Shown here piece by piece: positions 25,834 to 38,080 of a stretch of 64,000 nt of DNA; positions within the stretch are counted from its first letter, which is position 1, and every line of letters starts with the position of its first letter. Under the pieces are notes generated by a model. That model saw nothing but the letters and a program-made list of their open reading frames with translations, had not been told where the DNA came from and searched no databases. The position numbers were made by a program, and so were the translations under genes. Source of the DNA: Crossiella sp. SN42. GTDB lineage: Bacteria > Actinomycetota > Actinomycetes > Mycobacteriales > Pseudonocardiaceae. The stretch covers positions 363,867 to 427,866 of the forward strand of contig NZ_JAMHIV010000002.1 of assembly GCF_023897065.1 (NCBI RefSeq), read 5' to 3'.

Positions 25834-26481
25834 TCACCGAGGCGTGATGAAGCCGGACTCATAGGCCGCGATGACCGCCTGGGTGCGGTCCCTGGCCTGC
25901 AGTTTCGCCAGCACGTTGCCCACGTGCGTCTTCACCGTCTGCAAGCCCACGAACAGCTTCTCCGCGATCTCGGCGTTGGACAGCCCGGTGGCCATCAGCC
26001 GCAGCACCGCCTCCTCGCGCTCGGTCAGCTGCGCCCTGGCCAGGGTGTCCGCGGCCCGTTTGCTGTGGTGCTCGGCGGCCAGCGACCGGATCGCTGAGGG
26101 GAACAGCAGCGTGTCGCCACCGGCCACGATGCGGATCGCGTGCACGATCTCCTCCGGCCGGGCCCGCTTGAGCAGGAAGCCGCTGGCGCCGACCCGCAGC
26201 GCGTCGTAGACGTACTCGTCGTTCTCGAAGGTGGTCACCACCAGGATCTTCGGCGGTTCGGCCACCGTGTCCAGCAGGTGCCGGGTGGCCTGGATGCCGT
26301 CCACCGCGGGCATCCGCACGTCCATCAGCACCACCTCCGGCCGCAGCCGGTGCACCAGGCCGGGCACCTCGGCGCCGTCGGCGGCCTCGCCGACCACGGT
26401 GAGGTCGGGTTCGGCGTTGATGATCGCGCGCAGCCCGGCCCTGATCAGGTCCTCGTCGTCGACGAGCAGCACGCTGGTCAT
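25834..26481 (-). CDS. NarL/LuxR-family response regulator
   Basis: 215 residues; ATG overlaps the stop of the sensor kinase (ATGA). Receiver domain residues 1-120 with DDEDLIRAGL at the start, phospho-acceptor Asp in LMDVRMP near 54 and the Lys in LLKRARPEEI near 105. The C-terminal LuxR helix-turn-helix is LTEREEAVLRLMATGLSNAEIAEKL, then VKTHVGNVLAKL. It controls transcription in response to the adjacent kinase. Confidence 0.93.
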   Translation of the reverse strand: MTSVLLVDDEDLIRAGLRAIINAEPDLTVVGEAADGAEVPGLVHRLRPEVVLMDVRMPAVDGIQATRHLLDTVAEPPKILVVTTFENDEYVYDALRVGASGFLLKRARPEEIVHAIRIVAGGDTLLFPSAIRSLAAEHHSKRAADTLARAQLTEREEAVLRLMATGLSNAEIAEKLFVGLQTVKTHVGNVLAKLQARDRTQAVIAAYESGFITPR

Positions 26482-27737
26482 GAGGTGGCCGCCCGCATCG
26501 GCAGGGTGGCCGCGACCCGCCAGCCGCCCTCGCACTCGCCAGCGGTGAGCTGACCGCGCAGCACGGTCACCCGCTCCCCGATACCGCGCAGGCCGCGCCC
26601 GCCGCCCTGTCCGCGACCGGCAGGCCGCTCCCCCAACGGGTTGGTCATCTCCAGCTCCAGGTGGTCCGCGCGCACGGCCAGCCGCAGGGTCACCGGAACC
26701 TTGCCGGCATGCCGCATCGCGTTGGTGAGTCCTTCTTGGACGATCCGGTACGCCTCCCTGGACACGGCCTTGGGCACGCGGTCCAGGTCGGCGCCGAGTT
26801 CGGCGGTGATCTCCACCCCGGCCAGCCTGGTGGTGCGCAGCAGGCCGTCCAGGTCGGCGAGGGTGGGTTGCGGGGCGGTGCCGCGGGACTCCTCGCGCAG
26901 GATGCCGAGCACGTGGTCCAGGTCGGCCAGCGCGCTGCGGGCGGCCTCCTCGATCGCACCCAGGGCGGCCCGCGCGAAGTCCCGGTCGGTGTCCAGCACC
27001 CGTCCGGCGGCCGCGGCCTGGATGGTGACCACGCTGAGCGCGTGCCCCACCGAGTCGTGCAGCTCGCGGGCCAGCCGGTTGCGCTGGGCCAGCTGCTCGG
27101 CCTTGCGCTCCAGCTCGGCCAGCCGCTCGGCCGGGGTGGGGCCGAGGAAGAACCCGGCCAGCCGGGCCAGCAGCCAGCCGATCGCGGCCACCAGGTACAC
27201 CGCGACCAGGGTCACGCCGATCGCGGCCAGCGGCGCCCACCACTTGTCGGGGCCGCCGGTGACCGGGAACGCCTGTGCGATGAACAGCGTGGTGTACCGG
27301 CTGAACGGCAGGGTAAACGCGCCGACCACGAACACCGGGATGATCAGCGTGAGCAGGCTGACCAGGAACCCGGTGATCAGGTGGATGATCAGCCAGGCCG
27401 CCACCCGCCACCGGATGCCCTGCCGGTGACCGCCCGCGAGGTCGGTGACCTGGACGCCGAGCAGGGTGCGCACCGCGGTGGTCTCCAGCACGCCCAGCGC
27501 CGGGATGAACGTGGTGAGCACCAGCGTGCCCAGGGCGAAGAAGGTGGCCAGCGCGCCCAGGGTCCAGCCCTCGGGCAGCGGCAGCGGCGGGATCTCGCCG
27601 CGCAGCAGCTCGGCTACCGCGGTGCCCGCGATGAAGTAGGGGGTCAGCAGCGCCCCGCCCAGCACGAGGTAGATCCACCGCAACAGGGTGGACCTGCTCG
27701 TCAGTGGCGTGAGCAGCTTGCCGAGGAGACCGGGCAC
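26478..27737 (-). CDS. Two-component sensor histidine kinase (HisKA_3 type)
   Basis: 419 residues. Four or five membrane segments lie in residues 15-200 with little extracytoplasmic sequence, suggesting that a membrane-related signal is sensed. The phospho-acceptor His lies in ARELHDSVGHALSVV near residue 222, with the HATPase_c domain after residue 310 (EGLTNAMRHAG as N box, GRGLRGIGERV as G box). It is co-transcribed with the response regulator and divergent from a small membrane protein gene. Confidence 0.92.
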   Translation of the reverse strand: MPGLLGKLLTPLTSRSTLLRWIYLVLGGALLTPYFIAGTAVAELLRGEIPPLPLPEGWTLGALATFFALGTLVLTTFIPALGVLETTAVRTLLGVQVTDLAGGHRQGIRWRVAAWLIIHLITGFLVSLLTLIIPVFVVGAFTLPFSRYTTLFIAQAFPVTGGPDKWWAPLAAIGVTLVAVYLVAAIGWLLARLAGFFLGPTPAERLAELERKAEQLAQRNRLARELHDSVGHALSVVTIQAAAAGRVLDTDRDFARAALGAIEEAARSALADLDHVLGILREESRGTAPQPTLADLDGLLRTTRLAGVEITAELGADLDRVPKAVSREAYRIVQEGLTNAMRHAGKVPVTLRLAVRADHLELEMTNPLGERPAGRGQGGGRGLRGIGERVTVLRGQLTAGECEGGWRVAATLPMRAATS

Positions 27738-28308: not shown

Positions 28309-28591
28309 GACGTTTCACAGCCGCCGACTAAAGCAATTCTGGCTCCTTACGCGATCTTCACAGCTTTTCGCCGTTTACGCTGTCCGATTCGCGCTGTTGC
28401 GATCCATTTCGCCCGGATCACCCTGGCATGTCGGGTGGATTTCTTATACCAGTTCTTTACCTTCCCGGTTTCCTGACCAGCACCCGGCGGCTTACCCCGT
28501 TAGTGGGACGCCATGGACAGCGCGTGGAAAATCTGCGTAGATTTTGACTCATCCCATCACCCCATCGCGTAATTTCCGGGGAGCAGGTCCG
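28309..28591. other. AT-rich intergenic region before the lysyl-tRNA synthetase cassette
   Basis: About 280 bases with clearly lower GC than the surroundings and no gene visible on either strand. It contains several T-rich runs (CTTTTCGCC, TTTCTTATACCAG) that could include a promoter, and the inverted repeat AAAATCT-GCGT-AGATTTT at its end. The low GC continues into the first part of the synthetase gene, a possible sign of transfer. Confidence 0.6.
28528..28545. promoter_or_regulatory. AT-rich inverted repeat upstream of the class I LysRS gene
   Basis: Perfect 7-bp arms AAAATCT / AGATTTT around GCGT, 46 bases before the ATG. In a genome this GC-rich it stands out and could be an operator or a small leader hairpin. 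Confidence 0.5.
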
Positions 28592-30166
28592 ATGCCGCCA
28601 CGAGACTGGTGTGTCGCCGAGTCAGCCAAAGTCAGCGCGTTGCTGGACAAACGCGGGGAAACCGCCGGAGAGGTGCTTTTCGGCGCTGGGTTCGGTCCAT
28701 CCGGGTTACCGCACATCGGCACGTTGTGCGAGGTCATGCGCACCGGTTTTGTCCGCACGGCCTTCGCGGAGACCACCGGCCGTCCGACCAGGCTGGTGCT
28801 GGTTTCCGACGATATGGACGCCCTGCGAAAAGTCCCGGACGGTTTTCCGAACCGCGAGCTTCTGGAACAGCACCTGGGTTTGCCACTGCATCGGGTACCT
28901 GACCCTTTTGAGCAGCATGAAAGCCTTTCCACGGGGATCAACGCCCGCTTGCGCCGCGTGCTGGATGCCTTCGAGCTGGACTACGAGCTGGTGTGCAGCT
29001 CCGCCGCGTACGCATCTGGTAAGTACGATGACACGATCCGTTCGTTGCTGGCCGACCTGGCCGGGTTCAACGAGCTGGTCGGCGCTTCGGTGGGTCCGGT
29101 GCGCCGTGGCTCGTACAGCATCCTGATGCCGGTGTCCGCGAGCACCGGCCGGGTTATCGAACACACCAGGGTTCTCGAAGTGGACCCGGTGGCGGGCACC
29201 CTCACCTACGAGATCCCGGCCGATGTGATCATCCAGCGACCGGGCCTGGACTACGGGATCGAGCCGCAGGAGTACTACGCGGGCGAGCCGATCGGCGAAC
29301 CGGTCACCGTGTCCGCGCTGGGCGGGGCCTGCAAGCTCCAGTGGAAGGCCGACTGGGCGATGCGGCTGCTGGCCGGCGGCGTGGCCTACGAGATGCACGG
29401 CGAGGACCTGGCCGCCTCCGCCCAGGTGGTGCGGCGGATCTGCCACCGGTTGCGCCGGGAACCGCCGGTGCTGTTCGGCTACGGCCTGTTCACCGACGAA
29501 CGCGGGCACAAGATCTCCAAGTCCCGCGGCAACGGCTTCTCCCTGACCGAGGCCCAGGACTACTTGAGCCAAGAGGCCCTGCGCCTGCTGCTCTACCGGA
29601 AACCGCGCCGCCCCAAGCGGTTCGGTCCCGCGCTGACGCCCCGGCTCAACGACGCGGTCCGGCAGGAGGCCCGCCGCGCGGCCGATCCCGAGCGGGGCGC
29701 GGGCGCCAGGGTCCGGCTGCACCGGATCGGTGCGACGGCCCGGATCACGGGGCCGGGCTTCGGGAAGCTGTGCCGGGTGCTGGACGCCTGCGCGCCGGTG
29801 GACTTCGCGGCAGCGGTGGAGTTCGCGCGGCGGTACTTCGGCGACGGGATCGAGCACGAGACGCTGGTGCGGGCCTGGAACTTCCACGAGGCGCGCAAAC
29901 CCGTCGCGGAGCCAAGGGTTTTCGCGCCGGCGGAGGCCGCGTTGCTCGAACGCGCGGCGGAGGTCATCGAGCTCGCCCCGCCCGCCGAGCTCGCGGTCCG
30001 CCTGCACCTCCTGCTCACCGTCTCCCCGCTCGGCAGACCCGCCGCCTGCCGGGTCCTCTACCTGGCCCTGCTCGGCCGCCCGCACGGCCCGCGCCTGGCC
30101 ACCTGGATCCGGATCACCGGACCCAAACGCTCTCTCCGCCTGCTCCGCGAGACCCTCGCCCGTTGA
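28592..30166 (+). CDS. lysK: Class I lysyl-tRNA synthetase
   Basis: 524 residues. ATG at 28592 is chosen (GGGGAGCAGG upstream; family-like N-terminus). It charges lysine to tRNA(Lys) through lysyl-adenylate. Signature motifs are intact: PHIGTL (HIGH motif, His41) within SGLPHIGT, and KISKS at residues 307-311. The middle carries the class I LysRS blocks YELVCSSAAYASGKYDD and PGLDYGIEPQEYYAGE. Slightly shorter than usual. It is followed 16 bases later by an aldehyde dehydrogenase and then an exporter, which suggests a role beyond housekeeping; a class II LysRS elsewhere cannot be checked here. Confidence 0.85.
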   Translation: MPPRDWCVAESAKVSALLDKRGETAGEVLFGAGFGPSGLPHIGTLCEVMRTGFVRTAFAETTGRPTRLVLVSDDMDALRKVPDGFPNRELLEQHLGLPLHRVPDPFEQHESLSTGINARLRRVLDAFELDYELVCSSAAYASGKYDDTIRSLLADLAGFNELVGASVGPVRRGSYSILMPVSASTGRVIEHTRVLEVDPVAGTLTYEIPADVIIQRPGLDYGIEPQEYYAGEPIGEPVTVSALGGACKLQWKADWAMRLLAGGVAYEMHGEDLAASAQVVRRICHRLRREPPVLFGYGLFTDERGHKISKSRGNGFSLTEAQDYLSQEALRLLLYRKPRRPKRFGPALTPRLNDAVRQEARRAADPERGAGARVRLHRIGATARITGPGFGKLCRVLDACAPVDFAAAVEFARRYFGDGIEHETLVRAWNFHEARKPVAEPRVFAPAEAALLERAAEVIELAPPAELAVRLHLLLTVSPLGRPAACRVLYLALLGRPHGPRLATWIRITGPKRSLRLLRETLAR

Positions 30167-30182
30167 CCCAAGGTGGTTCGCC

Positions 30183-31427
30183 GTGACCGTCACCTCCCTC
30201 CCCGTGTCCACTGTGGACTTCACCGAGCTCCGGCAGCGCGCCGCCGCCTTCGCCGCGCATCTTCAGACCCGCGCCGAGGACGTCGTGCGCAGCCTCTCCG
30301 GCTACCAGTGCGCCAACGTGGCGCTGGACGAGATCGACCGCTCGGTGGAGTTCCTGGCCAACCTGCACCGCAACCGGGAGTACTTCCAGGGGCGGGTGCA
30401 GGGCGTCACCAGCTTCCTGCCGCTCAACCAGCCGTTGTACGCCACGGTGTGCTTCGGCGTGATCCCCTCGCTGATGGCCGAGGAGGCCGCGCTCCGGCCG
30501 CCGACGGTGATGCACCCGCACTACCGCAAGCTCGCCGAGGTCCTCGACCTGCCGGCGTACTTCCCGAACCTGCGAGTGTCCTATCAGGACCGTGAGGTGT
30601 TCGTGGCCCAGCGCGCCCGGCGCACCGACGCGGTGGTGTTCACCGGCTCGCCGGACAACGCGGCCAAGGTCCGGCGGCTGTTCCTCAAGCGGACCCTGTT
30701 CATCCTCAACGGTTCCGGCCACAACCCCCTGGTGGTCACCGAGTCCGCGGACCTGGCGGCGGCGGTGGACAGCGCGCTGCGGGTGGTGCTCTACAACCAG
30801 GGCCAGGACTGCGCCGGACCCAACGCGATCCTGGTGCACCGGGCCCGGCTGGCCGAGTTCCGGGAGGCGCTGGTGCTCCGGCTGCGCGGCTTGGAGCACC
30901 GGGTCGGGCCCTACGCCGACCCGGACAACCTGGTCGGCCCGAACAGCGACCCCGACCACCCGGTGAAGATCATCCGGATGTTCAAGGAGGACCGGGAGTT
31001 CTGCGTCTACGGCGGCGACATCAACCCGGTCACCGGGATGATCCGGCCCACCGTCTTCCAGAAGGACCTCGCACTGGGCGGCAACTACCAGGAGTTCTTC
31101 GCCCCGGTGTTCTACCTCCAGCCCTACGACACCGACGGCGAGCTGGCCACCTACTTCACCGACCACCGCTACCGCAACAACGCCATGTACGTCTCGCTGT
31201 TCGGCGAGAGCCCGTACGTGGACTCGCTGCTGGACACCCCGCTGCACGAACCGGACTCGATCCTGCGGAACACCGACCTGCACCTGACCGAGAAGGGCTA
31301 CCTGCCCTACGGCGGCCAGGGCCCGGCCGCCTCCTGCCGGTACGTGGACGGGGAACGGGTGCCGGGCGCGACCTCGCCGCAGCGGGACATCTTCCAGCAC
31401 CTCGTGGCGCCGCGGCTGGCATGCTGA
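30183..31427 (+). CDS. Aldehyde dehydrogenase-family protein without the general-base Glu
   Basis: 414 residues, GTG with AAGGTGG upstream. ALDH superfamily: catalytic Cys210 in YNQGQDCAGPN is present, but the usual ELGGK-like motif reads LNGSGHNP with Asn176 in place of the Glu that activates water. Loss of this Glu is common in acylating (thioester-reducing) ALDHs, so a reductase of an activated acyl group is possible. It is shorter than typical ALDHs (about 480), with a short N-terminal cofactor region. Lies between class I LysRS and an exporter with an 8-base overlap to the latter. Confidence 0.75.
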   Translation: MTVTSLPVSTVDFTELRQRAAAFAAHLQTRAEDVVRSLSGYQCANVALDEIDRSVEFLANLHRNREYFQGRVQGVTSFLPLNQPLYATVCFGVIPSLMAEEAALRPPTVMHPHYRKLAEVLDLPAYFPNLRVSYQDREVFVAQRARRTDAVVFTGSPDNAAKVRRLFLKRTLFILNGSGHNPLVVTESADLAAAVDSALRVVLYNQGQDCAGPNAILVHRARLAEFREALVLRLRGLEHRVGPYADPDNLVGPNSDPDHPVKIIRMFKEDREFCVYGGDINPVTGMIRPTVFQKDLALGGNYQEFFAPVFYLQPYDTDGELATYFTDHRYRNNAMYVSLFGESPYVDSLLDTPLHEPDSILRNTDLHLTEKGYLPYGGQGPAASCRYVDGERVPGATSPQRDIFQHLVAPRLAC

Positions 31428-32569
31428 GCCGCCGCTGGGAGCCGGTCGCCGCGGTCAGCACGGTCGCGGTGGTCGGCCTGGCCACCGGACTGGCGATTCC
31501 GTTGGTGTCGCTGCGGTTGGCCGCCGCCGGGGCGGGCAGCGCGGTGGTCGGCGCGGCCGCCGCGCTGCCCGCGCTGGGCATCCTGTGCGCGGCCCCGCTG
31601 ACCGGGCCGCTCACCCGGCGCTGGCCGGTACGCACCGTGCTGCTGGGCGCGTTGCTGGCCTCGGCGCTGAGCCTGCTGCTGCTCACCACCACCGCGGACC
31701 TGTTCGCCTGGCTGGTGCTGCGGTTCACCGTGGGCGCGGCCGCCGGCGTGCTGCTGGCGCTGGGTGAGACCTGGATCAACGCGGTGGCCGCCGACGGGGT
31801 GCGCGGGCGCTGGGTCGCGGTGTACACCTCGGTGTTCACCCTGTGCCAGGTGTCCGGGCCGGGACTGCTGGCCTGGCTGGGTTCCGGCGGGTCCGCGCCG
31901 ATCCTGGTCACCGTGGCCGCGCACCTGCCCGGCCTGTTACTGCTCGCGTTCACCCGCTGCGAGATCGACGTCGAGCACGGGCCGCGGTCCTTCGGGCTGC
32001 TGGGTTTCGCCCGGGCCGCGCCGGTGATCGTGCTGGCGGTGCTGCTGTTCTCCTTCTTCGACAGCGTGGTGCTCGCGCTGTTCCCGTTGTACGGCATGGC
32101 CTACGGACAGCCGGAGCGGATCGCGGTGCTGCTGGTCGGCGCGGTCTTCGCCGGGGACGCGCTGCTCCAGGTGCCCCTCGGTTGGCTGGCCGATCGGGTG
32201 GACCGAAGTCGGCTGCACCTGGCCTGCGGAGCCGTGGTGCTGCTGCTGGCGCTGGGTTTGCCGCTGCTGATGCCGCACCCGGTGCTGCTGTGGCCCGCGC
32301 TGGTGCTGCTCGGCGGTGCGGCCGGTGGCGTCTACACCCTTGGCCTGGTGCGCATCGGCGAACGGTTCCGGGGCGCGGACCTGGTCACCGCGAACGCCTG
32401 CGCCACCACGCTGTGGGGCCTGGGCAGCCTGGCCGGGCCGCCGCTGGGCGGACTGGCGGTGGAGCTGCTGCGGCCGGACGGGCTGATGCTGGCGCTGGCC
32501 GCGGTGACCGTGCTGTTCCTGCTCTCCGGCCGGTTCAGCGTTGCACGCCACGGGGTTTCACCGCGCTGA
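31421..32569 (+). CDS. MFS transporter (exporter-like)
   Basis: 382 residues, about 12 hydrophobic segments. The ATG overlaps the end of the dehydrogenase by eight bases, so the two are translationally coupled. The cytoplasmic loops have MFS features (GPLTRRWPVRTVL in loop 2-3, GWLADRVDRSRLHL in loop 8-9). It resembles YcaD-type efflux proteins. By position it would export (or import) the substrate of the LysRS/ALDH cassette. Its last 35 bases overlap the convergent permease gene. Confidence 0.82.
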   Translation: MLSRRWEPVAAVSTVAVVGLATGLAIPLVSLRLAAAGAGSAVVGAAAALPALGILCAAPLTGPLTRRWPVRTVLLGALLASALSLLLLTTTADLFAWLVLRFTVGAAAGVLLALGETWINAVAADGVRGRWVAVYTSVFTLCQVSGPGLLAWLGSGGSAPILVTVAAHLPGLLLLAFTRCEIDVEHGPRSFGLLGFARAAPVIVLAVLLFSFFDSVVLALFPLYGMAYGQPERIAVLLVGAVFAGDALLQVPLGWLADRVDRSRLHLACGAVVLLLALGLPLLMPHPVLLWPALVLLGGAAGGVYTLGLVRIGERFRGADLVTANACATTLWGLGSLAGPPLGGLAVELLRPDGLMLALAAVTVLFLLSGRFSVARHGVSPR

Positions 32570-33332
32570 GCCCGAACAGCCCGGCCACGGTGAGCGCCAG
32601 CAACAGGATCGTGCTCGCCGCGGCCAGGAACACCGCGCCGCGGTCGGTGTGCGCGAAGATGCTCACCGGCAGCGTGCGCCAGTCCGGCGGGTACAGCATG
32701 ATCGTCGCGCCGACCTCGCCCATGGACAGCGCCAGTCCCAGCCCGGCCGCGCCGGACATCGCGGGCAGCAGCAGCGGCAGTCGCACCCGCCACAGCACCC
32801 GGCCCGGCCGCGCGCCCAGACTGGCCGCGACCTGGTTCAGCGCGGGGTCGGCGCGGTCCAGCGCGGCGGCGACCATGCTGTAGGTGAACGGCAGCACGAT
32901 CACCAGGTGCGCCAGCAGCACGATCCACCGGGTTCCGTTGAGCAGCAACGGCGGCCGGCTGAACGCCACCAGCAGCGCCAGGCCAAGCACCACCGAGGGC
33001 ACCGCGATCGGCAGGTGCAGCACCAGGTCCACGATCCGGCGCGGCAGCTTGGGCAGGCCGCGCACCACGATCGCGCCCCAGGAGCCCAGCAGCACCGCGG
33101 CCAGCGAGGCCAGCGTCGCGGTCTGCAAGCTGACCAGGGCGCTGGCCAGGCCGTCGCCGGAGACCGCGGCGGCCAGGTGGTCGCCGGTGAGCTCCCCTGG
33201 CAGCACGCCGTTCCAGCTGCCCGCCACCGCGGCCAGCGCGATCATCGCCAGCGGGGCCAGCACGATCACGCCGAACAGCAGCGCGAACACCAGCCACAGG
33301 ATGATCCGGCTACGCCTTGTCCAGACCAACAC
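32535..33332 (-). CDS. ABC transporter permease, 2-aminoethylphosphonate type
   Basis: 265 residues with six membrane segments. The EAA-type loop that contacts the ATPase is visible (NQVAASLGARPGRVLWRVRLP). It ends the minus-strand phosphonate operon and overlaps the second permease by 23 bases, and the exporter gene on the other strand by 35. The Fe3+/spermidine/phosphonate (PhnV-like) class is inferred from the binding protein and ATPase. Confidence 0.82.
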   Translation of the reverse strand: MLVWTRRSRIILWLVFALLFGVIVLAPLAMIALAAVAGSWNGVLPGELTGDHLAAAVSGDGLASALVSLQTATLASLAAVLLGSWGAIVVRGLPKLPRRIVDLVLHLPIAVPSVVLGLALLVAFSRPPLLLNGTRWIVLLAHLVIVLPFTYSMVAAALDRADPALNQVAASLGARPGRVLWRVRLPLLLPAMSGAAGLGLALSMGEVGATIMLYPPDWRTLPVSIFAHTDRGAVFLAAASTILLLALTVAGLFGLSAVKPRGVQR

Positions 33333-34110
33333 GGTCGGCTCCCGTCCTGCTGAAGACCCAGCGGTACAGCCCGTACAGGGCGAGGGAAAGCGCCACGTTC
33401 ACCACCGCGACCACACTGGCCTGCGGGAAGTCGAAGGTGATGATCCCCTTGGTGTAGACCAGCATCGGCAGGGTGACCACGTCCTTGGCGCCGATGAACA
33501 GCACGATGCCGAACTCGTTCATGGTGAGCAGCAGGGTCAGGCAGGCCCCCGCGGCCAGCGCCGGACGAGCCTCCGGCAGCACCACCCGCCACAGCACCCG
33601 CCACGGCCGCGCGCCCAGGCTGGCGGCCACGTCCAGCTGCGCGCCGGGCAGCTGGCGGAACGCGGCCAGCGCTGGCCGCAGCACGAACGGCGTGTAGAAG
33701 GTGACCTCCGCGAGCAGCACACCCCAGGGCGTGTACAGGAAGTCCAGCGTCCCCTGGCCGAGCACCGCGTTGAGCACCCCGGCACTGCCGTAGAGGAAGG
33801 TGAAGGACAGTGCGATCAGGAAGGAGGGGAAGGCCAGCACCGCGTCCACCAGCCGCACCGCCAGCCCGGCCCCGGGAAACGGCGCGAAGGCCAGCACCAG
33901 CGCCAGGAACGTGCCCAGCAGCAGGCAGCCCGCGGTGGCCGCCACGGCCAGCAGCACGGTCCGCCACACCGCCTGGCCGAACTCCGCGGAGGAGAGCACC
34001 CGTACCCAGGCGTCCCCGGTGAAGGACTGCTGGGCCACCAATACGAGCGGATAGCAGAAGAAGCCGAGCACCACGAGCAGCGGCGGCAACAGCCACAGCA
34101 GTCGTCTCAC
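33310..34110 (-). CDS. ABC transporter permease, 2-aminoethylphosphonate type
   Basis: 266 residues, six membrane segments. Start ATG overlaps the stop of the ATPase gene by four bases. The EAA loop is LDVAASLGARPWRVLWRVVLPE. The two permeases share this loop closely and would form a heterodimer. PhnU-like position in the operon; the substrate is inferred from neighbours. Confidence 0.82.
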   Translation of the reverse strand: MRRLLWLLPPLLVVLGFFCYPLVLVAQQSFTGDAWVRVLSSAEFGQAVWRTVLLAVAATAGCLLLGTFLALVLAFAPFPGAGLAVRLVDAVLAFPSFLIALSFTFLYGSAGVLNAVLGQGTLDFLYTPWGVLLAEVTFYTPFVLRPALAAFRQLPGAQLDVAASLGARPWRVLWRVVLPEARPALAAGACLTLLLTMNEFGIVLFIGAKDVVTLPMLVYTKGIITFDFPQASVVAVVNVALSLALYGLYRWVFSRTGADRVGLDKA

Positions 34111-35174
34111 CAGGTGCCCCCGGCCGGTACCAGCGGGCAGCCGTCGGCCACGGTCACCCCGACCCGCTCGCCGAGCGCGGGCAGTCCGTCCATTGTGGAC
34201 ACTTCGGCGCGGGCGGGGCCGAGGTCATCCAGCTCCAGGTCGAGCCGGAACCCGGTGCCGCGCCACTGCACCCCGACCAGCCTGCCGGGCAGGCCACCTG
34301 CCGGATCGGCGTGCACGCTGAGCCGGTGCGGCCGGACGCCGAGCGTGGCCTGCTGCCCGGCCTGGACCGCGCCGTTGGCCGCCGCGCGCACGACCAACTG
34401 TCCGAGCCGCACCTCGGCGGCGTCCGCGCCACTGTCCAGCACCCGCACCGGCAGCAGGTTGGCCGAGCCGAGGAAGGCGGCGGTGAACGCCGAGGGCGGC
34501 CGCTGGTACAGCTCGCGGGCCGGGCCGATGTCGACCAGCTTGGCCTCCCGCATCACCGCGATCCGGTCGGCCAGCGCGAGTGCCTCGCCCTGGTCGTGGG
34601 TGACGTGGATGATCGCGGTGTCCGGCAGTTCGGCGCGCAGCCGCAGCAGTTCGGCGATCATGTCCTCGCGCAGCGCCGCGTCCAGCGCGGAGAGCGGTTC
34701 GTCCAGCAGCAGCACCGGTGGCCGGATGGCCAGTGCGCGGGCGATCGCGATCCGCTGCTGCTGCCCACCGGAGAGCTCCCGCGGATACCTGTGCCGGAAC
34801 CCGGCCATACCAACAAGTTCCAGCACCTCGGTCACCCGGCGCTCGACCTCCCGGCGGCCGGCCCGGCGGGCGCGCAGGCCGAAGGCCACGTTGTCGAAGA
34901 CCCGCATGTGCGGGAACAGCGCGTAGCTCTGCACCACCACGCCGAGCCCGCGCCGGTGCGGCGGCAGGTCGGTGACGTCCTCGCCACCCAGGAACACCCG
35001 GCCGCCGCTGGGCCGCAGGAACCCGGCGATGGCCTTGAGCGCGGTGGACTTGCCGGAGCCGGAGGGACCGAGCAGGGCCAGGGTCTCGCCGACCGCGACC
35101 TCCAGGTCCAGCCCGGCCAGCGCCACCGTTCGTCCGAAGTGGACACTGACCTGTTCGAGGCGGACCGCGCTCAC
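34107..35174 (-). CDS. ABC transporter ATP-binding protein, phosphonate type
   Basis: 355 residues. Walker A GPSGSGKST near residues 36-44, Q-loop VVVQSYALFPHM, signature LSGGQQQR, Walker B VLLLDEPLSALD and H-loop VTHDQ are all intact. The C-terminal 110 residues are the TOBE regulatory domain. It fits the PotA/PhnT-like importer ATPases. Overlaps the binding-protein gene and the permease gene by four bases each. Confidence 0.9.
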   Translation of the reverse strand: MSAVRLEQVSVHFGRTVALAGLDLEVAVGETLALLGPSGSGKSTALKAIAGFLRPSGGRVFLGGEDVTDLPPHRRGLGVVVQSYALFPHMRVFDNVAFGLRARRAGRREVERRVTEVLELVGMAGFRHRYPRELSGGQQQRIAIARALAIRPPVLLLDEPLSALDAALREDMIAELLRLRAELPDTAIIHVTHDQGEALALADRIAVMREAKLVDIGPARELYQRPPSAFTAAFLGSANLLPVRVLDSGADAAEVRLGQLVVRAAANGAVQAGQQATLGVRPHRLSVHADPAGGLPGRLVGVQWRGTGFRLDLELDDLGPARAEVSTMDGLPALGERVGVTVADGCPLVPAGGTW

Positions 35175-36196
35175 CGGCCGACCGCCTTGCCGTAGGCGGC
35201 CAGGTCGGCGTCCAGCCGGGCCAGCACCGCGTTCCAGTCCGGCTGCCAGATCTCCACCCCGGTCAGCTGCGCGCTGACCTGTTCGGCCAGCGGCCCCTCG
35301 GCCTTGACGTCCGTGCGGCCCGGCGAGCCGAAGCTCTCCGGCGCGGTGCGCTGCACCTCGGTGGAGAACAGGAACTCCAGCAGCTTCTTCCCTGCCTCGG
35401 CGTGCGGGGCGTTCGCGGCCAGCCCGGCGTGGTACGGGATGGCGAAGGTGGAGCGCTTGCCGTCCGGGCCGGCGGGCAGGAACAGCCGCATGTTCGCCTT
35501 GTCGTTGTTGACCAGGGCGAGGTTCATCTGCAGGTCACCGTTGGCCACGTGCAGTTCGCCCTTGGCCAGCTTGGGCTGGAGCTTGCCGGTGGAGGCGGAC
35601 GGGCCGACGTTGTTGGCCTCCAGGCGCTTGAGGTAGTCCAGCGCGCCCTGCTCGCCGTAGACGTGCTGGAGCTGCAACAGCATCGCGGTGCCGTCCCCGG
35701 CCTGGCCGGGCGTGGAGTACTGGATCTTGCCCTTGAACCGGGGGTCCAGCAGGTCGTCCCAGGTCTGCGGGGCGGGCTTGGCGAAGTCCGGGTTGTAGGC
35801 CATCACCAGGTAGTTGTTCAGCATCGCCGCGTACCGGTTGCCGGGGTCGCGGGCCGGCACCTGGTCGCTGCCCGGGATCACGTGCTGGGCCAACAGGTTC
35901 TGCTGGGCGGCGCGCTGCACGAACGGCGGCAGCGTGACCACCACGTCGGCCTGCGGGTTGCTCCGCTCCCGCTCCATCCGGGAGACGATCCCGCCGGAGC
36001 CCTCCTCCACCAGGTTGACCCCGATGCCGGTCTTCTTGGTGAACTCGGCGAACCGCTTGCCGTACCAGTCCTTCAGGCCGTCCGCGCTGTAGACGACCAC
36101 GGTGCCCTCGGTTCCCCCGCCCGCCGCGGTGCCACCACAGGCACCGGTGGCGGCGAACAGGAGCAGTGTGGCGGCGGCGGCCAGCACACGACGCAT
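35171..36196 (-). CDS. 2-aminoethylphosphonate ABC transporter substrate-binding lipoprotein
   Basis: 341 residues. ATG at 36196 is chosen because GGGAG lies six bases upstream; the TTG five codons earlier lacks a site. Signal MRRVLAAAATLLLFAATGAC is a lipoprotein signal with Cys20. The mature protein is an iron/phosphonate-type extracellular binding protein (VVVYSADGLKDWYGKRFAEF, then NNYLVMAYNP and SFGSPGRTDVKA). Its resemblance to PhnS-type proteins and its place in the operon suggest capture of aminophosphonates. Confidence 0.85.
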   Translation of the reverse strand: MRRVLAAAATLLLFAATGACGGTAAGGGTEGTVVVYSADGLKDWYGKRFAEFTKKTGIGVNLVEEGSGGIVSRMERERSNPQADVVVTLPPFVQRAAQQNLLAQHVIPGSDQVPARDPGNRYAAMLNNYLVMAYNPDFAKPAPQTWDDLLDPRFKGKIQYSTPGQAGDGTAMLLQLQHVYGEQGALDYLKRLEANNVGPSASTGKLQPKLAKGELHVANGDLQMNLALVNNDKANMRLFLPAGPDGKRSTFAIPYHAGLAANAPHAEAGKKLLEFLFSTEVQRTAPESFGSPGRTDVKAEGPLAEQVSAQLTGVEIWQPDWNAVLARLDADLAAYGKAVGR

Positions 36197-36207
36197 GGTG
36201 TTCTCCC

Positions 36208-36891
36208 TCAACGACTTTGGCTGATCAGCAGATCGGGTAGCTCACGAACGGAGTCGAGCACATGGGTCGCCCCGGCGGCACTGAGTGCTTCCCGGTCATG
36301 TGCCCCGGTGAGCACCCCGGCAACCACCGAAGCTCCGGCCCGCAGTCCACTGTGGACATCGGAGGCGGTGTCACCGACCACGGCGACCTGGCGCACGTCC
36401 TCGATCCCCAGGCGCAGCACCGCGGTGAGCACCAGATCGGGGTACGGCCGCCCCCGCCCGGCCTCCGCCGGGGTGAGGCTCAGGTCGACCAGATCCCGCC
36501 ACCCCAGCGCGTCCAGCAGACGATCGCGGGTCGGCGCGGCGAACCCGGTACCGAGGGCGACCCGGATCCCGTTGTCCCGCAACCGGGTAATCGCCTCGGC
36601 CGCACCCGGCACCGGCGCGCAGTGCCCGGCGTCGACCAGGTCCGCGTAGGCCAGCTCGAAGGCTTGGTTCGCGGTCTGCGCACGGTCCTCGTCGTTGTCC
36701 AGCAAGGCCCGGAACACGGTGATCTTGGATTCGCCCATGGTGGCGCGCACGTAGTCGAGCATGCCGGGATAGGCGGGGTCCTCCGGCCGCACACCGACCG
36801 CGCCGACCGCGGCGGTGAAGGCCTGTTCGACCAGCCCGCCGTCGAGCACGGTGGTGCCCGCCATGTCCAGCACTGCCAAGGTGATCGTCAC
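36208..36891 (-). CDS. Phosphonatase-like HAD hydrolase (PhnX-like)
   Basis: 227 residues, GTG overlapping the stop of the oxidoreductase gene. HAD nucleophile motif is LDMAGTT near residue 9, the phosphonatase form rather than DxDxT. The cap has GESKITVFRAL with the conserved Lys (near 54) expected to form a Schiff base with the aldehyde, and Arg replaces Lys in GRGRPYPDLV; VVGDTASDV is the last acidic motif. These features match the 'phosphonatase-like' family that cleaves phosphonoacetaldehyde or its hydroxyl derivative and pairs with an FAD amine oxidase rather than the transaminase PhnW, exactly as here. Confidence 0.88.
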   Translation of the reverse strand: MTITLAVLDMAGTTVLDGGLVEQAFTAAVGAVGVRPEDPAYPGMLDYVRATMGESKITVFRALLDNDEDRAQTANQAFELAYADLVDAGHCAPVPGAAEAITRLRDNGIRVALGTGFAAPTRDRLLDALGWRDLVDLSLTPAEAGRGRPYPDLVLTAVLRLGIEDVRQVAVVGDTASDVHSGLRAGASVVAGVLTGAHDREALSAAGATHVLDSVRELPDLLISQSR

Positions 36892-38003
36892 AGTCCGGCC
36901 TCCAGCGCGGTGGTTTCGGCGATCGCCGGCGAACAGGTCATGCCCCGCCCGCCGGGCCCGGCGATGACCCAGGCCCGCTCGGTGAGCCGCGCCCGGTGCA
37001 CGATCTCCCCGGTCAGGCTCTGCGCGTACACCCCGGCCCAGCGCCGCCGGATCAGCGGAAGCTCGCGCCCCAGCAGGGATTCGGTGACCTCGCGCAGGTA
37101 CTCGTAGGGCTGTTCGTCGGTGTCGAACGGGAACGGCTCCGCATAGCCGTGGGTGTCCCCGATGGTCAGCCCGCCGTCCCGCCGCTGCACCACCAGCAGC
37201 TGCATGTCGTGCTCCTCGGCCACCGCCGGCTGCGGCTGCCTGACCCGCAGCTCGTCCAGCGCGGGACCCGCGTAGGCCGGGTAGTAGCGCAGGCTGTCCG
37301 CATCGGCCAGCGCGGTCGGGAACTCCTCCCCCAGCGGCTCGGTCTGCATCATCTGCAACCGCACCCGCCGCAACGGCAGCTCCCCCGCCACCTCCCGGGC
37401 CAGCCCGCCCAGCTGCGCCCCGACGCACAGCAACACCAGATCGGCCTCGTGCACCTGCCCGTGGTCGTCCCGCACCCCGTTCGCGGTCAGCTCCCGGACC
37501 TCCCGCCCCGGCAACCAGGCATACCGCCCGGTGGCGAGCAGGTGCTCCCGCAACGCCGGCTGCGCGGTCCGCGGCTCCACCACGGCATCCCGCGCACACC
37601 ACAGCGCGGCCAGGAACTCCCCGCGCAGCGCCGGATTCCGCACCCGCGCCTCGGCCGGATCGAGCAACGTGGTGCCCCGCCGCTCCGCCGCACCCGAGGC
37701 GACAAACGCCTCAGCCACCGCCAGCTCGGCATCGGTCCGCAACGCGGTCAGCGACCCCGCCGCCCGGAACCCCAGCCCCGGCACCACCGCACCCAGCTCC
37801 GCCCACAGCTCCCGGGCCCGCGCCGCGGTCGCCAGCTCAGCGCCGTCGGCCCGCCCACTCACCCAGACCAGCCCGAAGTTGCGCACCGAGGCGCCCCGCG
37901 CCTCCGGCTCCCGCTCCAGCTGGATGACGTCATGGCCCCGGCTGAGGGCCTGCCAGGCGTGCATGGTGCCCAGCACGCCACCGCCCACGATCAATACTCG
38001 CAC
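36888..38003 (-). CDS. FAD-dependent amine oxidoreductase of phosphonate pathway
   Basis: 371 residues. GTG at 38003 gives the usual start MRVLIVGGGVLG, an FAD-binding GxGxxG-like fold; other in-frame starts lie just upstream. The body is DAO-type (VIQLEREPEARGASVRNFG, LTIGDTHGY, GPGGRGMTCSPAIAE at the end). This family (related to glycine/N-methyl amine oxidases) lies next to phosphonatase-like hydrolases and is thought to oxidise aminophosphonates or their N-methyl or hydroxyl derivatives to the aldehyde. First gene of the operon. Confidence 0.85.
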   Translation of the reverse strand: MRVLIVGGGVLGTMHAWQALSRGHDVIQLEREPEARGASVRNFGLVWVSGRADGAELATAARARELWAELGAVVPGLGFRAAGSLTALRTDAELAVAEAFVASGAAERRGTTLLDPAEARVRNPALRGEFLAALWCARDAVVEPRTAQPALREHLLATGRYAWLPGREVRELTANGVRDDHGQVHEADLVLLCVGAQLGGLAREVAGELPLRRVRLQMMQTEPLGEEFPTALADADSLRYYPAYAGPALDELRVRQPQPAVAEEHDMQLLVVQRRDGGLTIGDTHGYAEPFPFDTDEQPYEYLREVTESLLGRELPLIRRRWAGVYAQSLTGEIVHRARLTERAWVIAGPGGRGMTCSPAIAETTALEAGL

Positions 38004-38080
38004 GGGCCACACGCTTGTCGGCGCAACCGAACAGACCGGGACGGTCAGCCCAACTGGGGGTGAACTCCCAGCCAAAGGAG

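What the first reader, a model, noticed from the sequence alone, without database searches (positions are those of the whole stretch)
28528..32569. Class I LysRS + Glu-less aldehyde dehydrogenase + MFS exporter: candidate lysine-derived metabolite cassette
Seen: lysK (HIGH and KISKS intact), 16 bases on a ALDH-fold protein with Cys but Asn in place of the general-base Glu, then an MFS exporter overlapping it by 8 bases, all behind an AT-rich leader with a 7-bp inverted repeat and a lower-GC 5' end. Known: ALDHs without this Glu are often acyl (thioester) reductases; glutamyl-tRNA reductase shows that aminoacyl-tRNA can be a reduction substrate. Inference: the synthetase may supply activated lysine (adenylate or tRNA ester) that the ALDH-like protein reduces to an aldehyde, and the exporter removes the product; a minimal tRNA-dependent natural product or self-resistance unit.
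Basis: partly seen in the sequence, partly recalled or inferred. Interest (0 to 1): 0.75.

Follow-up and report, generated by a model that had tools for sequence, protein, structure and literature searches.

The report
Synthetase-coupled amino acid reductase cassette
Three adjacent bacterial genes encode a relative of the enzyme that loads lysine onto transfer RNA, a dehydrogenase-like protein that likely reduces the loaded amino acid to an aldehyde, and a predicted exporter; in other bacteria the first two are fused into one protein, which points to a likely undescribed way of making small molecules from an activated amino acid.

Summary
LysRS-ALDH-MFS recurs in the same order in 11 of 11 genomes found with the close ALDH (three genera). 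The genome has two other, class II, LysRS genes. The decisive evidence is fusion: of 181 listed members of this ALDH family, 45 carry a whole or partial class I LysRS catalytic domain in the same chain (35 LysRS-ALDH, 10 ALDH-LysRS), and 59 more carry a LysRS C-terminal part behind the ALDH. All 181 keep the Cys; 180 have Asn where oxidising ALDHs have Glu. The sister ALDH clade is fused to AMP-binding domains in 7 of 7 long proteins scanned. Best reading: an aminoacyl reductase, somewhat more likely using the tRNA ester than the free adenylate. Corrections: the overlap is 7, not 8 bases; the inverted repeat is not conserved; the LysRS misses both curated LysRS cut-offs and differs from canonical enzymes at three near-invariant positions, so the substrate may be a lysine analogue. 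Against: several candidate-phyla fusions have lost the KISKS motif. No activity is shown. Our searches found no paper on it.

The parts
28433..28470 (+). leader block 1, nearly identical in 5 Crossiella sequences; possible regulatory element
   Evidence: alignment of window, L051, L050, L006, L049
28490..28520 (+). leader block 2, nearly identical in the same 5 sequences; possible regulatory element
28528..28545 (.).
   Evidence: intact in 0 of 4 relatives aligned
28592..30166 (+). class I LysRS-like protein, 524 aa (ATG; an upstream TTG at 28544 stays in frame)
28712..28723 (+). HIGH-type motif (HIGT), residues 41-44
29510..29524 (+). KISKS motif, residues 307-311
29648..30163 (+). C-terminal helical (tRNA-binding type) domain of the LysRS, residues 353-524
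30183..31427 (+). ALDH-fold putative aminoacyl reductase, 414 aa (GTG)
30708..30710 (+). Asn176 codon at the general-base Glu position
   Evidence: N in 180 of 181, E in 6 of 6 outgroup ALDHs
30810..30812 (+). catalytic Cys210 codon
   Evidence: C in 181 of 181
31421..32569 (+). MFS transporter, predicted exporter, 382 aa
   Evidence: next to the ALDH with a 7-base overlap in 11 of 11 genomes

Best explanation
The cassette encodes a class I LysRS-like enzyme that likely activates lysine or a close analogue, an ALDH-fold protein lacking the general-base Glu that likely reduces this activated amino acid to an amino aldehyde, and a predicted MFS exporter that would move the product out. Proposed steps, all inferred: (1) amino acid + ATP gives the aminoacyl-adenylate and then, somewhat more likely than not, the aminoacyl-tRNA; (2) Cys210 of the ALDH-fold protein attacks the activated carboxyl and forms an acyl-thioester; (3) NAD(P)H reduces the thioester, and with no Glu to activate water, hydrolysis to the acid is not favoured; (4) the amino aldehyde (2,6-diaminohexanal if the substrate is lysine, which could close to a seven-membered cyclic imine) is released and exported. 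Shown here: gene order, overlaps, fusions, residues, predicted folds, trees. Not shown: any of the four chemical steps.
Against: No biochemical data. The LysRS scores 350.6 and 101.3 bits against curated LysRS cut-offs of 648 and 147.55, and three positions near-invariant in canonical enzymes are changed, so lysine is not certain. Several canonical C-domain columns are lost in the cassette (for example N395 to R in 9 of 9), which weakens tRNA binding. In 5 of 9 ALDH-first (candidate-phyla type) fusions KISKS is not recognisable, and in 1 of these HIGH is also gone, so some of those LysRS domains may not activate anything. The sister ALDHs work with ligases that use no tRNA, which fits direct use of the adenylate. 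74 of 181 members show no LysRS part; genomic neighbours outside Actinomycetota could not be read. At least two of the 59 'C part only' proteins carry a sub-threshold PF01921 trace (P0267; P0077). No tRNA gene lies in the window.
Confidence: 0.65

Rival explanations
1. Same chemistry without tRNA: the LysRS-like protein makes an aminoacyl-adenylate that passes straight to the Cys of the ALDH, as LuxE and LuxC do for fatty acids (recalled). Counted inside the 0.65 of the best explanation.
For: Sister ALDH clade is fused to AMP-binding domains and Pfam showed no carrier domain between them in 7 of 7 proteins scanned, several cut at one end by the locus; the cassette LysRS C domain has lost canonical columns.
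Against: 59 ALDHs carry a LysRS C-terminal part without a detected catalytic domain, which makes little sense without tRNA; the C-domain fold is kept.
Confidence: 0.28
2. The extra LysRS is a resistant spare copy that protects the host from a lysine-like inhibitor, the MFS exports that inhibitor, and the ALDH acts on an unrelated aldehyde.
For: Two class II LysRS exist beside it; an exporter-type gene is next to the ALDH in 11 of 11 genomes; three near-invariant residues are altered.
Against: Does not explain covalent LysRS-ALDH fusions in both orders, ALDHs that carry a LysRS C part, or the loss of the Glu needed for aldehyde oxidation.
Confidence: 0.12
3. The ALDH-like protein is an esterase or editing factor that clears wrongly charged tRNA-Lys, a quality-control unit rather than a biosynthetic one.
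For: ALDHs can show esterase activity (general knowledge); a C-terminal LysRS part is attached to 59 of 181.
Against: Residues conserved across the ALDH superfamily are kept (E304 in 178 of 181, N82 in 177 of 181, the rest mostly gaps); sporadic distribution (own genome only among 394 of its class); MFS gene and, in the second genus, a SARP-type regulator nearby.
Confidence: 0.06

Closest known systems
Glutamyl-tRNA reductase (HemA, tetrapyrrole pathway; recalled)
   Same: would reduce an aminoacyl-tRNA through a Cys thioester with NADPH to an amino aldehyde
   Different: P0002 is an ALDH-fold protein (PF00171) and its Pfam scan lists no other family at E 0.001; GluTR is not fused to its synthetase (recalled)
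LuxC/LuxE fatty acid reductase (recalled)
   Same: adenylate-forming partner plus an ALDH-fold reductase; two members of this clade, P0015 and P0055, pass the LuxC cut-off (29.4 and 24.1 bits, cut-off 21)
   Different: [quoted passage not shown] P0002 itself has no LuxC match at E 0.001
AMP-binding + ALDH fusion proteins of Pseudonocardiaceae, three of them in this genome, and Streptomyces ALDH + ligase clusters
   Same: about 30% identical ALDH domain, Cys kept, Glu lost, activating partner fused or nearby
   Different: separate clade, SH-aLRT 99; Phe or Tyr instead of Asn at the Glu position in 14 of 14; ANL-type ligase instead of LysRS
Class I lysyl-tRNA synthetase (1irx, lysK)
   Same: domain, motifs, whole-length fold
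   Different: under both curated cut-offs where a canonical control, P0113, passes both; changed residues 32, 271, 298
Aminoacyl-tRNA synthetase relatives used in biosynthesis, such as MshC (mycothiol) and VlmL (valanimycin; recalled)
   Different: none is known to me with an ALDH partner
Leupeptin pathway (leupABCD; passages of PMC11480411 and PMC8283571 seen)
   Same: bacterial peptide aldehyde; a lysine analogue is reported in the passages of PMC11480411
   Different: gene functions were not in the passages seen; no sequence was compared here

Membership tests
Housekeeping class I LysRS | PF01921 catalytic domain with HIGH and KISKS motifs | tested here: met
   275 bits, cut-off 27; motifs kept
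Housekeeping class I LysRS | curated equivalog cut-offs NF001968 and TIGR00467 | tested here: not met
   350.6 of 648 and 101.3 of 147.55; canonical P0113 scores 808.6 and 190.7
Housekeeping class I LysRS | residues near-invariant in non-linked enzymes (S/T32, K271, E298) | tested here: not met
   103 canonical plus 17 actinobacterial: S/T 120 of 120, K 117, E 117; cassette-type and LysRS-first fusion 27: A32 in 26 of 27, K 0, E 0
Housekeeping class I LysRS | only lysine-charging enzyme gene of the cell | tested here: not met
   two class II LysRS in the genome, one a lysX type with LPG synthase domain
Housekeeping class I LysRS | functional anticodon-binding C domain | tested here: inconclusive
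   fold kept, several conserved columns lost
NAD(P)-dependent aldehyde dehydrogenase (oxidising) | ALDH fold and catalytic Cys | tested here: met
   [not shown]
NAD(P)-dependent aldehyde dehydrogenase (oxidising) | general-base Glu | tested here: not met
   Asn176; N in 180 of 181 members, E in 6 of 6 outgroup ALDHs
LuxC acyl reductase | PF05893 above cut-off | tested here: inconclusive
   no match for P0002 at E 0.001; relatives P0015 and P0055 pass
Aminoacyl-tRNA reductase (functional class of GluTR) | NAD(P)H-dependent reduction of an aminoacyl-tRNA | not testable with these tools
   needs an enzyme assay
LysRS-coupled ALDH clade defined here | ALDH clade joined to LysRS by fusion or adjacency, Cys and Asn kept | tested here: met
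   P0002 inside the 60-row clade, SH-aLRT 100. Part of the clade shows no LysRS link (74 of 181)

The most novel reading that the evidence does not exclude
This is a second kind of aminoacyl-tRNA reductase: an ALDH-fold lysyl-tRNA reductase, coupled to or fused with its own class I LysRS, spread over Actinomycetota, Gammaproteobacteria and candidate-phyla bacteria, where LysRS domains were joined to the same reductase lineage in two opposite orders, and where even the tRNA-binding end of LysRS alone was attached to the reductase.
Probability: 0.37. Interest if true: 0.9.

Novelty: new variant of a known kind. Interest (0 to 1): 0.77.

Why it matters
If true, it adds an aminoacyl-tRNA (or aminoacyl-adenylate) reductase of a different fold to a list on which I recall only glutamyl-tRNA reductase, and a gene-level marker (LysRS fused to an ALDH without its Glu) by which genome miners could find small biosynthetic clusters that need no NRPS or PKS gene. 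It would also give a reason for a class I LysRS copy in a bacterium that already has class II enzymes. Amino aldehydes are protease-inhibiting warheads (leupeptin type, general knowledge) or precursors of cyclic imines, so the product could be bioactive. The question is directly testable with two purified proteins.

Tried and rejected
Literature: ten searches listed no paper on a LysRS-ALDH fusion or a lysyl-tRNA reductase; the library holds open-licence PubMed Central papers only, so print elsewhere is not excluded. Phages and viral contigs: no close relative (query P0015: 15 records of distant ALDHs; none). Plasmids: 13 records, all Streptomyces, all of the sister type. Rfam in the leader: nothing. 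tRNA genes in the window: none. Fusion of LysRS and ALDH in the frame-open loci of the second genus: rejected, the genes are in different frames in 11 of 11. An early reading that every ALDH starts with a LysRS C-terminal piece was an artefact: that profile had been built with three fusion proteins in it; rebuilt from 103 canonical sequences. The three LysRS-C-then-ALDH proteins (P0013, P0014, P0256) may be broken or wrongly started fusion genes and are not used as an argument. Three truncated fusions (P0104, P0107, P0120) fell under the 250-bit ALDH cut and are not among the 181. Gene neighbours of the fusions outside Actinomycetota could not be read. Mended on checking: the regulator upstream in the second genus is adjacent in 3 of 4 loci, not 4; the odds of the novel case went from 0.40 to 0.37, of the best explanation from 0.66 to 0.65, of the adenylate rival from 0.38 to 0.28 and of the resistance rival from 0.10 to 0.12, because one search showed KISKS missing in 5 of 9 ALDH-first fusions and because the first set of odds did not add up.

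Full report
What is there. The window lies in a Crossiella-like actinomycete: same-genus hits include Crossiella sp. S99.2, 90% identical in the ALDH. Three genes run on the + strand: a 524-aa class I LysRS-like protein (28592-30166), a 414-aa ALDH-family protein (30183-31427) and a 382-aa MFS protein (31421-32569). The gap between the first two is 16 bases and the overlap of the last two is 7 bases. The leader is 56-58% GC in a 71.4% GC window. No Rfam family was found there at E 0.1.

Is the trio a unit? In the family search 33 of 297 genomes had a match to the ALDH at E 1e-20; in 10 of them the best match is close (73-100% identity), the others are about 30% identical. A search of the 25 genomes held of the second genus found 5, one of them new. 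In all 11 genomes with the close ALDH (5 of the own genus, 1 Kibdelosporangium, 5 of the second genus, which is Saccharothrix judging by a shared contig length with P0009) the order is LysRS, ALDH, MFS; ALDH and MFS overlap by 7 bases in 11 of 11, and LysRS and ALDH overlap in 9 of 11 and are 16 bases apart in 2 (starts are taken from the alignment). Among 10 loci of about 20 kb each, no other gene family was found in common between the genera (rough gene caller, 35% identity cut). In 3 of 4 flanked loci of the second genus a large regulator lies about 0.2 kb upstream of the LysRS, in the fourth about 2.5 kb upstream; the two scanned are SARP-type (BTAD, NB-ARC, TPR). The trio is sporadic: own genome only among 394 of the class (E 1e-60) and, for close matches, own genome only among 396 of the phylum.

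Is this the only LysRS? No. The genome has one class II LysRS in a 525-codon frame and one class II LysRS fused to a transmembrane and an LPG-synthase domain, the lysX type. A single class I homologue was found.

Fusions. A search with the ALDH alone returned 92 proteins (only the 8000 best word-sharing candidates were scored), and a search widened in length returned 287, best 120 listed. Many of the latter are single proteins with PF01921 and PF00171, mostly 935-1000 aa, from Photorhabdus, Xenorhabdus, Photobacterium, Vibrio, Brenneria, Pseudomonas and Saccharothrix sp. Mg75, and from Peribacterales (names as printed). With profiles built from 103 canonical class I LysRS, 181 listed members of this ALDH family (over 250 bits, the window's own included) sort as follows: 35 LysRS then ALDH, 10 ALDH then LysRS, 59 ALDH then a LysRS C-terminal part without detected catalytic domain, 3 LysRS C part then ALDH, 74 with no LysRS part. 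In 4 of the 45 the catalytic domain is clearly partial (P0220, P0222, P0270, P0292). Two of the 59 carry a PF01921 trace below its cut-off (P0267; P0077). The sample is shaped by the length windows and the capped list. The C-terminal parts are weak one by one (for the ALDH-then-C-part examples printed, 10.6-19.8 bits) but strong together: 61 tails against the canonical C domain, 95.9% probability and E 6.5e-9 over 71 columns; against the catalytic domain 0.4% and against the ALDH 0.1%; 56 of 61 real tails and 0 of 1220 shuffled proteins hit.

Trees. The LysRS of cassette type and of LysRS-first fusions form one side of a branch (27 rows, SH-aLRT 93) apart from the canonical sample (26 of the 103 rows, 98) and from the ALDH-first fusions (9 rows, 100, joined by a long branch of unsure placing). 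The ALDHs of all LysRS-linked kinds form one clade (60 rows, 100), and the ligase-linked ALDHs another (14 rows, 99). Both trees are quick searches and both calls warn of long branches. The same reductase lineage is thus joined to LysRS in two opposite orders, which suggests at least two joining events (inference). Saccharothrix Mg75 carries a fused form inside the group with separate genes.

Mechanism. The fusions make functional coupling of the two proteins close to certain (inference). Loss of the Glu, and a sister clade paired with ligases, make reduction of an activated carboxyl the likeliest joint reaction. tRNA as carrier is favoured by the kept C domain and above all by the 59 ALDHs that carry only that part; direct use of the adenylate is the main rival. 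Export by the MFS rests on family membership and constant adjacency alone.

Novelty. None of ten searches of the paper library listed this fusion or a lysyl-tRNA reductase; I saw listings, plus passages of PMC11480411 and PMC8283571 on leupeptin. I rate it a new variant of a known kind (activation followed by reduction by an ALDH-fold enzyme), with the bolder reading in the novel case.

Noticed in passing
G000:C56:237794-238966, G000:C30:49718-50908, G000:C20:117815-118957 (loci L040-L042): The same genome holds three AMP-binding + ALDH fusion proteins of about 900 aa (Pfam), possible carboxylate reductases with no carrier domain seen.
   Followed up: partly
L043:11860-16633 and L044:11911-16983: Streptomyces plasmid clusters with a sister-type ALDH, a thiamine pyrophosphate enzyme and an adenylate-forming enzyme, near NikS-like, ATP-grasp and cysteine synthase genes: likely a natural product cluster.
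   Followed up: no
L045:5085-8138, L046:12148-15063 (same gene family in L047, L048): A SARP-type regulator (BTAD, NB-ARC, TPR; two scanned) stands upstream of the LysRS in the second genus, adjacent in 3 of 4 loci.
   Followed up: partly
window 28433-28470 and 28490-28520: Two leader blocks nearly identical in five Crossiella sequences; possible operator or promoter.
   Followed up: partly
proteins P0311, P0298, P0080, P0083: Relatives of the ALDH are fused to GNAT acetyltransferase, PLD-like or weak nucleotidyltransferase-like domains, hints of what may happen to the product.
   Followed up: no
proteins P0019-P0051 and similar (about 500-530 aa): A frequent N-terminal extension of about 80-130 residues ahead of the ALDH; in the one such protein scanned (P0026) Pfam named nothing but the ALDH.
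   Followed up: no
L072-L074: Three class I LysRS of one actinobacterial genus have Ala and Val at positions 298 and 271; over all groups the two positions keep or lose Glu and Lys together with one exception among 156 sequences, which suggests contact.
   Followed up: partly
window 25834-27737, - strand: Response regulator with LuxR-type domain and a histidine kinase upstream of the cassette; the kinase recurs in the five Crossiella loci and in none of the other five compared.
   Followed up: partly
window 32535-38075, - strand: ABC importer genes (two permeases, ATPase, solute-binding protein) and a DAO-type oxidoreductase downstream; they recur in the five Crossiella loci and in none of the other five compared.
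   Followed up: partly
P0266, P0268, P0272, P0292, P0300: ALDH-first fusions whose LysRS domain lacks a recognisable KISKS motif: possibly no longer synthetases.
   Followed up: partly
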